This document shows positions 1,677 to 17,569 of a DNA stretch of 21,133 nucleotides, in pieces. The stretch covers positions 1 to 21,133 of IMG/VR virus record IMGVR_UViG_3300026186_000012, one strand, 5' to 3'. Within the stretch, counting starts at the first letter, position 1. The number at the start of each line of letters is the position of its first letter. The translations under genes were made by a program, and so were the position numbers. Origin of the DNA: a virus. Under the pieces are notes generated by a model that was not told the DNA's origin, did no database searches, and saw only the letters and a list, made by a program, of their open reading frames with translations.

Positions 1677-3149
1677 ATGGCTGGCAGCTCCATCGATACA
1701 GATTTATTTGATGATAGTGAACTGCCAACATGGAAACACCCGGTTTTGCGGGACATTGAGCTAGACCTAGACCTCTTGGCTGATTGTTGGACAGGGTTAC
1801 GGGGTGTCGAATCAACCTACTTACCACAGGAACAGAAAGAACCGGATAAGGCATTTGAGGCGCGATTGAGTAGGGCAACCTATGTGCCTAGTTTTCGTAA
1901 AGCAATAGAAGCAATGGCAGGCATATTTGCACAATTCACCCTAACGGATTTACCTAGCTCTATTGAGGCACAATTAGAAGATGTTGATCAGCTTGGCAAT
2001 AATTTAACCGCGTTTAGCTCAATGGCAGATGCCCTAGCGATGAGGGATGGCGGTTGTTGTGTAATGGTTGAAATGCCGCCGCAAATTGCCATAGAAAGTG
2101 AAGCTGACAGGATCGCATTAGGTCGTCAGCCGTATCTAATCCTGATTGAGCGAAAGAATATCCTAAATTGGAAAACTGAATACATAGCAGGGCAAGAGAG
2201 ACTACAGCAAGCAACTGTCCTGGAATGGAGAGAAGAGCCAGTCGGTGAGTATGGGTTTGAGCTGCAACCGTTCTTTCGTGTATTAACACCTGGCGCATTT
2301 CAAGTTTATAAAATCAACAACAAAATCGGCTCACAGCAAAAGCTAATTCTTGTGGAAGAGGGTTTTACGTCGCTTGATGAGATTCCGCTCACTTGGTATT
2401 CTCCACAACCTCAAAGATGGGGCCATGGGCTGCCGCCGTTCCGTGAATTATCGTTGCTTACGTTGCAGCATTACCGCAGCAGAAGTGATCTAAACGAACT
2501 ACTCCACCGCTGTTGCCTGCCCGTACCTGTCAGAACTGGGGCTTTGTTTAGCGATGGAACCCCGCCGCCTTTAGTAATAGGGCCTAATTCAGTAGTTGAT
2601 ATTCCCGAAGGAGCGTCCTTCCATTTCGCCGAACCAACAGGTGGCTCATTAGACCAACAGGCAGCGCATCTGAGGCATATAGAAGAGTTAATCAACAAGG
2701 AAACACTCGCTTTTATGAGTGGGCAAGACGCAGCTATGACAGCAACACAGGCACGGTTACAAGCTGGTCAAGTTCAAAGTGGTTTAAGTCTTGCAGCACA
2801 GCAAAAAGCATCAATGTTTGAAGAGATACAGATGTTGTGGTGCTCTTATACCGGGGAAGAACCAACCGGCAGCCTTGAAGTTGCAGCCCAGGCGCTTGAG
2901 GCAAAATTAGAACCGCAACAAGTGGAGCAACTTAAGGGCCTTGCTGATGGTGGTTACCTATCAAAAGAAACAACGCTAGAGCTACTCCAACGCGGCGGCG
3001 TGCTCCCTATCACCTTTGATGTAGAAGAGGAAGTTCATCTAATGGAAGGACGTGATCAAGCCCTATTGAAGAGTCAACTAGAACGCGATAGAAGGATGAT
3101 GGAAGAAGGCTTTATGGCACCACCTAATCAATTTCTACCCGGTAACTAA
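1677..3149 (+). CDS. Phage portal protein (DUF4055-type)
   Basis: At 490 residues this has the length and pattern of the DUF4055 family, which are portal proteins forming the dodecameric DNA gate at the capsid vertex. Visible hallmarks are the N-terminal CWTGLRGVESTYLP region (residues 37-50) with RATYVPSFRKAIEAMAG soon after, the central segment with HGLPPF and LTLQHYRSRSDLNEL, and the C-terminal ATQARLQAGQVQSGLSLA block. The family normally lies between terminase and MuF genes. MuF follows here with a one-base TAATG overlap, but no terminase precedes it in the window. A competing ATG at 1673 is out of frame and closes quickly. Confidence 0.9.
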   Translation: MAGSSIDTDLFDDSELPTWKHPVLRDIELDLDLLADCWTGLRGVESTYLPQEQKEPDKAFEARLSRATYVPSFRKAIEAMAGIFAQFTLTDLPSSIEAQLEDVDQLGNNLTAFSSMADALAMRDGGCCVMVEMPPQIAIESEADRIALGRQPYLILIERKNILNWKTEYIAGQERLQQATVLEWREEPVGEYGFELQPFFRVLTPGAFQVYKINNKIGSQQKLILVEEGFTSLDEIPLTWYSPQPQRWGHGLPPFRELSLLTLQHYRSRSDLNELLHRCCLPVPVRTGALFSDGTPPPLVIGPNSVVDIPEGASFHFAEPTGGSLDQQAAHLRHIEELINKETLAFMSGQDAAMTATQARLQAGQVQSGLSLAAQQKASMFEEIQMLWCSYTGEEPTGSLEVAAQALEAKLEPQQVEQLKGLADGGYLSKETTLELLQRGGVLPITFDVEEEVHLMEGRDQALLKSQLERDRRMMEEGFMAPPNQFLPGN

Positions 3150-5080
3150 TGACTGCCGGTGATAGCTGGGAAAGACTCAGTGATGCAATCGACGGCCCCT
3201 TTGAACGTGACATTATTGATGGCCTTGTAAATGGTTATAAAGCCTTAGAACCAAGGATCGAAAGGGCATATAAAAAGGCAGTTTTAGGCGCTGGTGATTA
3301 CCCCTTGAGGCGATTACTGACCTTAAGGCAAGAGCTAGGGCAACAGTTGAGTGGCTTGCAGGTATCTGGCACATCACAAAAGAAGATCTTAAAAGCACTT
3401 GCAGAAGGACAAAAAGCAGCAGATGAATGGGCTAAAGCAGGTTTATACAAGAAAGACCCTAAGAAGTTTGGAAATCTAGGAATAGGTCTGACGCCTGGAA
3501 TGGCACAGCAAAACCCCGAAGCATTGATTGCAGCCGCACAACGTACCCACGCTTTGTCTAACTATGCACTAGGGGCAAAAGGTTCGCAGACTATAGCGTT
3601 GATAAATAAAATTTCTGATACTGATTTGCGTGGCCGCATTATGGGAGCTGTTGAATTTCACTTAGCGCAAGGAGATAGCTGGCGAAATCTTGAGAAAACG
3701 CTGAAAGATTCCTTGGAGTTTGCTAAGAATCGCGCTGAAACAGTAGCAAGAACTGAAATGGCGTCTGCAATGGTGGAAGGTGCAAAGATGAGATATCAAG
3801 AGGAAGGGATCGAATATGTGCAATGGAATGCCACGGGGTCTAGCCGTACTTGTGGATACTGTGCCCCTAGGGAAGGGAAAGTTTATGAATTAGGTAAGAC
3901 CGTATGTCCTGCTCACCCTAACTGCAGATGTGCGCTGACGCCTTGGGATCCAGACTGGCAGGAACTAGGGATAGCAAGCGCTGAGGAGGACGCTAAACAA
4001 CGTGATGAGGTGCTAGAGGAACTAGAGGCCGCAGGAAAGAAACCAATCAATTCAGCATCACCATTTGAGCGGGCATTAGGACTTGAGGAACCCCCAGGCG
4101 TTATATGGGAACCGTCAGCAATCACGAAAAAACCTAAGAAGTTCTCGTTTGGCATTGATTATAAAAAGATAAAAAAAGATATGGAAGATATGCAGGCAAA
4201 GCTCGCGAATGCACTCTCTGGTAATCTACCTTCCTCTAGTGATTCACCCGCTGAGGTTATATCGAAGATTGGATCATACAAGGATGTTGTAAAAGAAATG
4301 GATGATCAGATGGCAAAGATGGAACAGGACATCGCACTGATTTCTATTGACCCTAAACCATTCGATAAAAAGCCTACATTACCTTCTACAACTTCAAAAC
4401 TACGCAAAAAGAAAGTCACTGATGTTGATTTCTCTTATGGTGATATTATTGATGACCTTGGCTATTCAAGTAGAGAGGAATATGAGAAGGCTGTTCAATC
4501 TATTGATAGGTGGATAGGGTCAAGCTCTTCTAATATCAGGGGAGCCGAGGCACTGCAGGCACTTGAGGAAGGTAAAGACCTTAGTGGATATGCTAAAGAC
4601 ATGGCAGAAGAACTCAAGGCAGCAGCGTCTATCTCTAACTTATCTAACAAGGATTACATACAGGGCTATAAAGATGTAGCTGACAGCATTGAAGACTTCA
4701 TTGATAGAGCACCTATCTACAAAGGCGAAGTGCATAGGGGTATAAACTTTAGCTCCAAGCAACAAGCTGATGAATTTATAGCTAGACTAGATTCTGGGGC
4801 CAAGTCAGTAGCGACTGAATCCTGGACAGCCTACGCACCCGTAGCAGAAGGTTTCGCGACTGGAGAAAATGCACCTGTATCAGGCAAGTTTGCCGTTATT
4901 CTTCATGTTCAAAACAAACGCGGAGCACCTGTTGACGTATTTAACCCAATGGAGGAATCAGAAGTATTAATCCCTAAAAATAGTGCTTATAAGGTTAAGC
5001 GAGTAAGTCATGGCGCGACGTTACAGGGAATAGGAGGAACGACAATGAAGGTGGTTAATGTGTTCCTAAAGGCCCTATAA
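3149..5080 (+). CDS. MuF head morphogenesis protein fused to ADP-ribosyltransferase
   Basis: A 643-residue protein with two recognisable parts. Residues about 140-265 match the Mu gpF / SPP1 gp7 minor head family: ARTEMASAMVEG (200-211), W226, then a zinc-type cluster C235, C238, C253, H256, C259 and C261. MuF proteins sit on the portal inside the head and can enter the cell with the DNA. The last 130 residues look like an R-S-E ADP-ribosyltransferase: R530 in VHRG, the strand motif SWT at 558-560 followed by AxxxxxF, and the catalytic-loop pair E603-S-E605 followed by VLIPKNSAYKV. The two parts are joined by a charged, helical linker (about 275-510). The ExE motif is that of arginine-specific enzymes. 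Target unknown. Translation is coupled to the portal. Confidence 0.88.
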   Translation: MTAGDSWERLSDAIDGPFERDIIDGLVNGYKALEPRIERAYKKAVLGAGDYPLRRLLTLRQELGQQLSGLQVSGTSQKKILKALAEGQKAADEWAKAGLYKKDPKKFGNLGIGLTPGMAQQNPEALIAAAQRTHALSNYALGAKGSQTIALINKISDTDLRGRIMGAVEFHLAQGDSWRNLEKTLKDSLEFAKNRAETVARTEMASAMVEGAKMRYQEEGIEYVQWNATGSSRTCGYCAPREGKVYELGKTVCPAHPNCRCALTPWDPDWQELGIASAEEDAKQRDEVLEELEAAGKKPINSASPFERALGLEEPPGVIWEPSAITKKPKKFSFGIDYKKIKKDMEDMQAKLANALSGNLPSSSDSPAEVISKIGSYKDVVKEMDDQMAKMEQDIALISIDPKPFDKKPTLPSTTSKLRKKKVTDVDFSYGDIIDDLGYSSREEYEKAVQSIDRWIGSSSSNIRGAEALQALEEGKDLSGYAKDMAEELKAAASISNLSNKDYIQGYKDVADSIEDFIDRAPIYKGEVHRGINFSSKQQADEFIARLDSGAKSVATESWTAYAPVAEGFATGENAPVSGKFAVILHVQNKRGAPVDVFNPMEESEVLIPKNSAYKVKRVSHGATLQGIGGTTMKVVNVFLKAL

Positions 5081-5085
5081 CGATT

Positions 5086-5265
5086 CTATTCGTCAAACTG
5101 GAAATTAGACTTTTTAGCCAGTGCCTCTAAGAATCCCGGTTCCCCTGGCTTGATGTTGTCTATGGGCGCTACTTCCTCTGGGCCGGTAAGCATTGGGGGT
5201 GCATTCCATCTATCGGCGGTTAATTCTTTCTTTGATGTTGTGGTTTTAGGGGTTTCTTCCGTCAT
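5086..5265 (-). CDS. Leftward 59-residue hypothetical protein beside the ADP-ribosyltransferase
   Basis: The minus strand from ATG at 5265 to TAG at 5088-5086 encodes a 59-residue protein starting MTEETPKTTTSKKELTADRW and ending FLEALAKKSNFQFDE. It is mildly acidic (about 11 Asp/Glu against 7 Lys/Arg), with no cysteine and no membrane segment. It fills the only sizeable gap in the structural operon, is the only internal gene facing left, and has a perfect TATAAT just ahead of its start. It ends five bases from the 3' end of the MuF-ADP-ribosyltransferase gene. That position allows an immunity or regulatory role, but this is inference; no family is recognised. Confidence 0.6.
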   Translation of the reverse strand: MTEETPKTTTSKKELTADRWNAPPMLTGPEEVAPIDNIKPGEPGFLEALAKKSNFQFDE

Positions 5266-5271
5266 GGGGTA

Positions 5272-5277
5272 ATTATA
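5272..5277 (-). promoter_or_regulatory. TATAAT -10 box of the leftward gene
   Basis: Reading leftward, a perfect TATAAT is separated from the ATG at 5265 by six bases (TACCCC). Transcription would begin at or next to the start codon, implying a leaderless mRNA. No good -35 is visible, and the place where one would fall overlaps the rightward motif at 5290. Confidence 0.45.
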
Positions 5278-16867: not shown

Positions 16868-17569
16868 ATGGCTGATACACCTGAAAATGTTTCACCTGAC
16901 ACTCCCGAAGCTGAACCCGATAGTCTCGGACAGGCTGGAATGGCAGCACTCAAACAGGAACGCCAGAAGGTAACAGAACTAGAGCGAAAACTAAAACGCT
17001 ATGACAAGCACCTCGACGGTATAGAAATAGAAGAAATTCGTCAGCTCAGGGATAGCCAAAAATTGGAGGATGAAATCAGGGCAGAATATGATAAGCAGCT
17101 AGAAGTAGCTAAGACAGAAGCGCAAAAGGAAGCAAAGGCACAGCTAGAAATTAAAGATCAAAAATTCCTTGATGCTGTTGGGGAGAAAAATTCGCTATTA
17201 CAAAAGCAGCTCCTGAGCAATGCCTTCCAAGTCGCAGGTGGTCGCAGTGGTGGAGCAGAAGATGGAACAACCTATTTTGATGCGCTCTTAGGTGCTGTCG
17301 GTAATCAATTTAAGCTCAATGAAAACGGCGACGTGATTGTTTTAGATCCCAAAAATGGAGAGACTCGCTTGACTGCTGATGGTGATCCAATGACCCCTGC
17401 TGCATACCTCGAAAGCCTGAAAAATCACCCGGTATATGGTCATTTCTTTGCGCCCACTTCTGACGGTTTTGGGTCTGGAATGCGAGGTAGTGGGAACCTA
17501 ACCAGTGGACAGGTGCAAAGCATGAGCCCTCTCGAAAAACTTAGCTATGGCCTGGGAGGTGGAAAATGA
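16868..17569 (+). CDS. Scaffold-like capsid assembly protein, 233 residues
   Basis: The composition and order match phage scaffolding proteins, which template procapsid assembly and then leave. A Pro/Glu-rich disordered start (residues 1-18) is followed by LGQAGMAALKQERQKVTELE (20-39), a long charged coiled coil to about residue 118 (Lys/Glu/Gln heptads), then a globular C-terminal part with AYLESLKNHPVYGHFF (179-194) and a glycine-rich tail. Such genes normally stand immediately before the major capsid gene; here the next genes are a tail assembly chaperone and fibres. It lacks the start-associated motif that its neighbours carry. A minor structural coiled coil unrelated to scaffolding remains possible. 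Confidence 0.65.
   Translation: MADTPENVSPDTPEAEPDSLGQAGMAALKQERQKVTELERKLKRYDKHLDGIEIEEIRQLRDSQKLEDEIRAEYDKQLEVAKTEAQKEAKAQLEIKDQKFLDAVGEKNSLLQKQLLSNAFQVAGGRSGGAEDGTTYFDALLGAVGNQFKLNENGDVIVLDPKNGETRLTADGDPMTPAAYLESLKNHPVYGHFFAPTSDGFGSGMRGSGNLTSGQVQSMSPLEKLSYGLGGGK

What the first reader, a model, noticed from the sequence alone, without database searches (positions are those of the whole stretch)
4700..5080. MuF protein carrying a C-terminal ADP-ribosyltransferase with intact R-S-E residues
R530, SWT at 558-560 and E603/E605 appear in the right order and spacing for an active enzyme. MuF proteins reside in the head and can be injected, so this could be a virion-delivered effector that modifies host proteins at the onset of infection, or a MuF polymorphic toxin of the kind described from temperate phages, chiefly of Firmicutes. 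A cyanobacterial-phage version would be less familiar.
Basis: partly seen in the sequence, partly recalled or inferred. Interest (0 to 1): 0.7.

Follow-up and report, generated by a model that had tools for sequence, protein, structure and literature searches.

The report
Cyanophage head-protein ADP-ribosyltransferase with tiny partner
A virus that probably infects marine cyanobacteria carries, fused to a protein of its head, an apparently intact enzyme of a toxin-like family, and next to it lies a tiny undescribed gene that accompanies this enzyme in most related viruses and may hold it in check.

Summary
ORF 3149-5080(+) is a MuF head protein whose C-terminal domain (residues 430-643, larger than stated) is an ADP-ribosyltransferase: confident AlphaFold2 model (pLDDT 91), best matches Vis and Tre1, and R530, S558-W559 and E603-x-E605 kept in relatives. 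E605 is the likely catalytic Glu. MuF-ART fusions are already known (Bxa, EFV toxin, Microbacterium phages). Homologues exist in cyanophages P-SS2 and S-2L; the P-SS2 protein was found abundantly in purified virions in 2009, under the name major capsid protein. (1) In a cyanophage clade the C-terminus is swappable: MuF parts 98% identical carry either this ART or a metallopeptidase, and most relatives carry nothing. (2) A 49-68-residue gene sits directly after the ART gene, in no Pfam or PHROG family, under purifying selection. A profile found it in 30 of 40 ART loci and 0 of 72 bare-MuF loci; in the window it lies on the opposite strand (5086-5265). The peptidase version has a different small gene. 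This is the arrangement of an effector with a cognate inhibitor. Activity, injection and inhibition are inferred, not shown. New variant of a known kind.

The parts
3149..5080 (+). muF-ART gene, 643 aa; its ATG overlaps the portal gene's stop (TAATG, 3147-3151)
   Evidence: PF04233
3647..3937 (+). MuF domain (residues 167-263); R201, T202, C238, P254, H256, R260 invariant in 20 full-length proteins
4436..5077 (+). ADP-ribosyltransferase domain (residues 430-643), N-terminal helices plus ART core
   Evidence: AlphaFold2 pLDDT 91.3; fold matches; profile matches
4736..4738 (+). R530, the R of R-S-E (HRG)
4820..4828 (+). S558-W559-T560, the S motif
4955..4963 (+). E603-S604-E605, ExE motif; E605 is the invariant Glu
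5086..5265 (-). Small convergent gene, 59 aa: ART-linked microprotein, candidate inhibitor or partner
   Evidence: homology to + strand small ORFs after other ART genes, held-out E 8.3e-7 of 4304 frames and 7.9e-6 of 26213
5272..5277 (-). TATAAT, a -10-like box ending 6 nt before the ATG of the small gene; inference only
   Evidence: read; the promoter scan found no full sigma-70 site
1677..3149 (+). Portal gene; nearest relatives are in Synechococcus/Prochlorococcus siphophages (host inference)
   Evidence: phrog_145

Best explanation
The gene makes a head protein (MuF) of a probable cyanophage whose C-terminal third is an R-S-ExE mono-ADP-ribosyltransferase. SHOWN here by computation: MuF domain, ART fold, catalytic residues kept, purifying selection on the ART in relatives, swapping of the C-terminus in a related clade, and a conserved small gene directly after the ART. 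SHOWN by others: the homologue of P-SS2 is in the virion. INFERRED: the protein is built into the head, enters the cell with the DNA, and ADP-ribosylates arginines of host proteins early in infection (ExE is the arginine-type motif; recalled family knowledge, not tested). INFERRED: the small neighbouring protein binds the ART and keeps it inactive in the cell that makes the virions, or protects that cell against other virions carrying the same enzyme, as Bsi does for the MuF-ART toxin Bxa.
For: MuF. ART fold and residues. dN/dS of the ART part 0.05-0.23 in 11 informative of 13 pairs of relatives; 1 pair identical, 1 saturated. P-SS2 ORF030, average 96.5 peptides in purified particles (Table 2 of PMC2784084); that protein has MuF and matches the ART profile at 5.1e-56. 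Cargo swap: L053 and L054 share 98.2% of the first 396 residues but carry a peptidase and an ART. Small gene: 30 of 40 ART loci by profile, no hit elsewhere in 26,213 frames, 0 of 72 bare-MuF loci; pooled pN/pS 0.13 (+) and 0.15 (-). The peptidase type has its own small gene, in L053, L039-L042 and Prochlorococcus phage MED4-184. Precedent: Bxa with Bsi and BAH (PMC11699363).
Against: No activity, toxicity or binding data. The window's ART alone does not reach Pfam or PDB sequence thresholds. The small gene was not found with L028, cyanophage S-2L or, convincingly, P-SS2 (gp032 E 31); in L018, L020, L022, L030 and L031 the match to the held-out profile is weak or absent. In the window it is on the opposite strand to its partner, which is unusual for an immunity gene. 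Its model is mostly disordered (pLDDT 61.9). Two phages with near portals, S-CRES3 and S-CBS2, have neither MuF nor ART. No ADP-ribosylhydrolase or Macro gene in 15 records, unlike Bxa. The swap was seen in a sister clade, not in the window's own MuF lineage, and there rests on one peptidase locus (L053) among 80.
Confidence: 0.6

Rival explanations
1. Alt-like injected effector without immunity: the ART is packaged, injected and reprograms the host (for example RNA polymerase) as T4 Alt does; the small gene is a packaging chaperone, an activator, or unrelated to control of toxicity.
For: P-SS2 homologue abundant in virions; phage ARTs are often head-packaged and many are fused to MuF (PMC9503650, passages); integrase found in only 2 of 15 records.
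Against: A specific small gene goes with each type of cargo and is swapped with it, which plain Alt does not need.
Confidence: 0.27
2. Structural relic: the domain is kept for head assembly and its catalysis no longer matters.
For: Most MuF relatives do without any extension (72 of 80), so the domain is dispensable for infection and could drift.
Against: Catalytic residues kept and dN/dS low; dispensability itself argues against an assembly role.
Confidence: 0.06
3. The enzyme acts on NAD+ itself or on nucleic acids or small molecules (NADase, counter-defence) rather than on protein arginines.
For: The ART superfamily includes NADases and nucleic-acid modifiers (general knowledge; PMC9503650 passages).
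Against: ExE motif and nearest matches (Vis, Tre1, HopU1) point to arginine transfer; motif-to-target rules are imperfect.
Confidence: 0.15

Closest known systems
Bxa of Bacteroides stercoris prophage PhiBxa, with immunity proteins Bsi and BAH (PMC11699363: outline, passages, section 6)
   Same: MuF N-terminus, C-terminal arginine ART, small adjacent gene(s); homologues with other toxin domains
   Different: Different hosts; no hydrolase gene found here; our small protein is 49-68 aa and in the window convergent. Homology to Bsi not tested.
MuF polymorphic toxins (Jamet 2017, PMC5576092: passages)
   Same: MuF plus ART or metallopeptidase; 89.4% of 191 MuF toxin genes followed by a small ORF
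   Different: Described as exclusive to temperate phages, mainly of Firmicutes; the word cyanobacteria does not occur in its main text. Lifestyle of the window phage unknown.
P-SS2 ORF030 (gp30) and S-2L gene 17
   Same: MuF plus homologous ART in cultured cyanophages
   Different: gp30 is 1499 aa with a zeta-toxin domain and further C-terminal sequence; no confirmed copy of the small gene
MuF-VIP2 fusions of Microbacterium phages, clusters EH and EJ (PMC7302621: passages)
   Same: MuF fused to an ART, in phages described as lytic for EJ
   Different: Other hosts; sequence relation not tested here
T4 Alt
   Same: Works like: head-borne ART injected with DNA
   Different: Alt is a separate internal protein, not a MuF fusion (general knowledge)

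Membership tests
ADP-ribosyltransferase superfamily, R-S-E clade | ART fold | tested here: met
ADP-ribosyltransferase superfamily, R-S-E clade | R, S motif (here S-W-T) and ExE in order | tested here: met
ADP-ribosyltransferase superfamily, R-S-E clade | NAD-dependent transferase activity | not testable with these tools
   needs an assay
Pfam ADPrib_exo_Tox / ART models | score above curated cut-off for the window's own domain | tested here: not met
   12.9 vs 23.4 and 12.2 vs 22.3 bits; the homologous PaV-LD ORF079 passes ART at 24.2. So the window is not filed as a member of these two Pfam models
MuF proteins (PF04233) | domain above cut-off, gene directly after portal | tested here: met
MuF polymorphic toxins | variable C-terminal enzyme on a conserved MuF | tested here: inconclusive
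   met in the related clade; window's own MuF lineage has no close relatives to compare
MuF polymorphic toxins | small cognate gene adjacent | tested here: met
   as gene arrangement only:
MuF polymorphic toxins | immunity function of the small protein, toxicity of the enzyme | not testable with these tools
   needs co-expression
MuF polymorphic toxins | temperate phage | tested here: inconclusive
   PF00589 in 2 of 15 records, not in the window; most are fragments
T4 Alt-type virion effectors | present in the virion and injected | not testable with these tools
   virion presence published for the P-SS2 homologue only

The most novel reading that the evidence does not exclude
Siphophages of cyanobacteria carry an exchangeable set of head-borne enzymes (ART, metallopeptidase, or none), each exchanged together with its own tiny inhibitor; the ART inhibitor is a new family of 49-68-residue, largely disordered proteins that occlude the active site, encoded on either strand, in the window from its own minus-strand promoter so that it can be made independently of the head genes.
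Probability: 0.4. Interest if true: 0.75.

Novelty: new variant of a known kind. Interest (0 to 1): 0.62.

Why it matters
If true, cyanophages deliver a protein-modifying enzyme at the start of infection, and cultured relatives (P-SS2, S-2L, MED4-184) make it testable, with published virion data at hand for P-SS2. A specific ART partner of about 50 residues would be unusually small, and MuF effectors with cognate partners would extend to phages of Prochlorococcus and Synechococcus.

Tried and rejected
Chance motif: rejected by fold and profile evidence. Pfam and single-sequence PDB searches of the window alone: no significant ART. P-SS2 gp032 as the small partner: it looked similar by eye but scores E 31; not claimed. 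gp031 gave no hit in the same test. The genome-contig scan (A4) found no relative, and its second scan was not used. No ARH or Macro domain in 15 records, no PADLOC hit in 8 window proteins, no tRNA in the window, no full promoter near the small gene. First impression that no small gene is shared downstream (plus strand only, at least 50 aa) was wrong and was corrected. Families missing from the fold lists were not taken as evidence of absence.

Full report
WHAT IS THERE. The window is a 21,133-base virus record. The ORF at 3149-5080(+) is 643 aa, starts on the last base of the portal stop (TAATG), and has a MuF domain at residues 167-263 (PF04233, E 1.4e-13). R530, S558-W559-T560 and E603-S604-E605 are present as reported. 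The gene lies between portal and tail tube and tape-measure genes.

IT IS AN ART. tblastn of the C-terminus found six phage records: cyanophage S-2L (one), P-SS2 (three) and Planktothrix phage PaV-LD (two). A profile of six domains from these phages and the window (A1) matched in PDB sequences Vis (2.5e-8), Tre1 (4.6e-5) and XopAI; 7 of 8 hits up to E 10 are ARTs. With 23 rows (A5; window plus 22 of the loci, chosen to limit redundancy) Vis rises to 3.2e-11, all six hits at E 0.001 or better are ARTs, and four of 14 up to E 10 are not. AlphaFold2 gave pLDDT 91.3 and pTM 0.86 for residues 430-643. Foldseek against PDB listed ARTs in its first 33 rows, the best at E 2.3e-7; VIA-align Z was 14.2 for Vis (rmsd 3.3, 171 aligned) and 14.2 for Tre1 (2.9, 153). 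In the viral library the best matches were a 1499-residue protein (C7F476, TM 0.87) and a 489-residue protein (A0A7T5QUH7, TM 0.75), lengths equal to P-SS2 gp30 and S-2L gene 17. Against this, the single sequence scores below Pfam cut-offs and alone finds no ART in PDB sequences.

RESIDUES AND SELECTION. In 36 rows (window plus 35 loci) R and S-W are kept in all, E-x-E in 35; L025 is cut by an in-frame stop before it. The search patterns contained ExEVL, so the E count is biased; R and S-W were not in any pattern. Loci fetched by the MuF part only match the ART profile at about 1e-58, and the two alignments printed whole (L050, L054) show R, S-W-T and E-G-E. In PaV-LD ORF085 the first E of ExE is T, so E605 is the invariant one. 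In 20 full-length proteins (of the 35 loci plus window; fragments and near-duplicates left out) MuF is found in 20 of 20, ADPrib_exo_Tox in 12 and ART in 8 at E 0.01. dN/dS of the last 200 codons is 0.05-0.23 in 11 of 13 pairs; one pair was identical, one saturated.

VIRION. Sullivan et al. 2009 (PMC2784084; passages and outline seen) detected 35 proteins in purified P-SS2 particles; ORF030 (17648-22147, 1500 aa) averaged 96.5 peptides, second only to the tape measure (102) in the part of the table shown, under the name major capsid protein. That ORF is gp30, with MuF and a zeta-toxin domain and the ART (5.1e-56). Peptide number grows with protein length and is not copy number. 'adp-ribosyl' does not occur in that paper (0 occurrences).

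HOST. The first eight portal hits are records of Synechococcus or Prochlorococcus phages at 36-40% identity; the next, a Pseudomonas phage, is at 28%, and cyanophage KBS-S-2A follows at 30%. The ART relative L008 lies upstream of a scaffold and a major capsid gene; homologues of these genes lie downstream in many of the other loci. The capsid of L008 is 69-78% identical to those of KBS-S-2A, S-H1, MED4-184, P-HS2 and MED4-117, next best 41%. The host is inferred, not shown. S-CRES3 and S-CBS2 have neither MuF nor ART by these profiles.

SWAPPABLE CARGO. The MuF parts of four ART relatives are 38-54% identical to those of these cultured phages, which end without an extension (KBS-S-2A 416 aa, S-H1 407 aa) or carry an HExxH metallopeptidase (MED4-184, 761 aa). 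A scan with the MuF part (594 relatives, 80 best kept) gave 72 with no extension, 5 ART, 1 HExxH, 2 cut by the contig end. L053 (peptidase) is 97.7% and 98.2% identical to L050 and L054 (ART) over the first 396 residues, and its C-terminus has no blastp match to theirs but matches L039 (44%, 5e-83) and MED4-184 (7e-23). L039 is 1007 aa with MuF, ART and peptidase in one chain; the Pfam peptidase match is weak (ATLF, 4e-4, below cut-off). DNA similarity of L050 and L053 stops inside the gene and resumes 172 nt after the ART stop, so the exchanged piece includes a small ORF.

THE SMALL GENE. A profile from four such ORFs, run over 4304 reading frames downstream of ART, peptidase and bare MuF genes, hit only ART loci among its 30 hits up to E 1. 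Iterated, 33 hits, all ART loci. As a held-out test a profile of 16 plus-strand copies alone scored the window's minus-strand ORF 5086-5265 at 8.3e-7, and at 7.9e-6 against 26,213 frames of all 128 loci held (0.90 Mb), where every hit up to E 0.5 adjoins a MuF-ART stop: 30 of 40 ART loci (two further rows are refetched pieces of the window). The 16 seeds match by construction; the window, L002 and L007-L011 were held out. The 30 fall into 8 of 14 ART clusters at 70% identity. Of the other ten ART loci, L018, L020, L022, L030 and L031 have minus-strand ORFs with a similar pattern but weak or no held-out score; L039-L042 have the peptidase-type small ORF instead; L028 has none. None of 72 bare-MuF loci has it (71 with at least 200 bp downstream). 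Plus-strand copies start at or within a few nt of the ART stop in most cases. pN/pS pooled over pairs (not independent) is 0.126 for plus and 0.153 for minus copies. Pattern: RF..PP, later KPGD.GFLEALA...GFKFVD. No Pfam or PHROG match for five members; one member found no convincing match in the phage collection. In the window TATAAT ends 6 nt before its ATG, which could give a leaderless transcript; the scan found no full promoter. The peptidase-type small gene belongs to phrog_36872, unknown function. Model of the small protein: pLDDT 61.9, one short helix at 45-53; no fold is claimed.

MECHANISM. Most likely the ART is built into the head by its MuF part, enters with the DNA, and modifies arginines of host proteins, while the small protein keeps it inactive where virions are made or protects that cell. 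The precedent is Bxa: a MuF-fused arginine ART, antibacterial, blocked by the small protein Bsi that binds it and reversed by the hydrolase BAH (PMC11699363: abstract, passages, section 6). No hydrolase or Macro gene was found in 15 records here. Alternatives for the small protein are packaging adaptor or activator.

LITERATURE AND NOVELTY. MuF-ART fusions as head-packaged effectors are described (PMC9503650 passages; PMC5512222 passages; PMC7302621 passages; PMC5576092 passages). Jamet et al. [quoted passage not shown] Searches for cyanophage with MuF, ADP-ribosyltransferase or polymorphic toxin listed no paper whose title, or abstract start where shown, describes this; the library is partial and the listed papers were not all read. 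I therefore call it a new variant of a known kind: known architecture, new phage group, new partner family, and a direct view of cargo exchange.

Noticed in passing
L003 7554-12053 (P-SS2 gp30): Published as major capsid protein, but it has MuF, a zeta-toxin kinase domain (9.8e-22) and an ART, plus about 450 further residues; looks like a polyvalent virion protein.
   Followed up: partly
L003 12050-12673 (P-SS2 gp031-gp033): Three small genes after gp30, one convergent, each with 1-2.5 peptides in the virion data; possible partners of the gp30 domains, but homology to the small ART gene was not supported.
   Followed up: partly
L005 (PaV-LD ORF079, ORF085): Planktothrix phage PaV-LD has five places matching the ART profile, two of them in tandem in one protein in which no MuF was found.
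   Followed up: no
L025 around 5327: One ART relative has an in-frame stop inside the domain while the small gene is kept; broken copy or read error.
   Followed up: no
L046 2051-4336 and L048 2050-4336: The MuF-peptidase gene is one ORF in MED4-184 and two overlapping ORFs in MED4-117.
   Followed up: no
window 16868-17569: Head scaffolding protein (phrog_206) placed after the tail genes, an unusual order.
   Followed up: no
L004 5041-6510 (S-2L gene 17): The 2-aminoadenine cyanophage S-2L also carries a MuF-ART, without a detectable small partner gene.
   Followed up: partly
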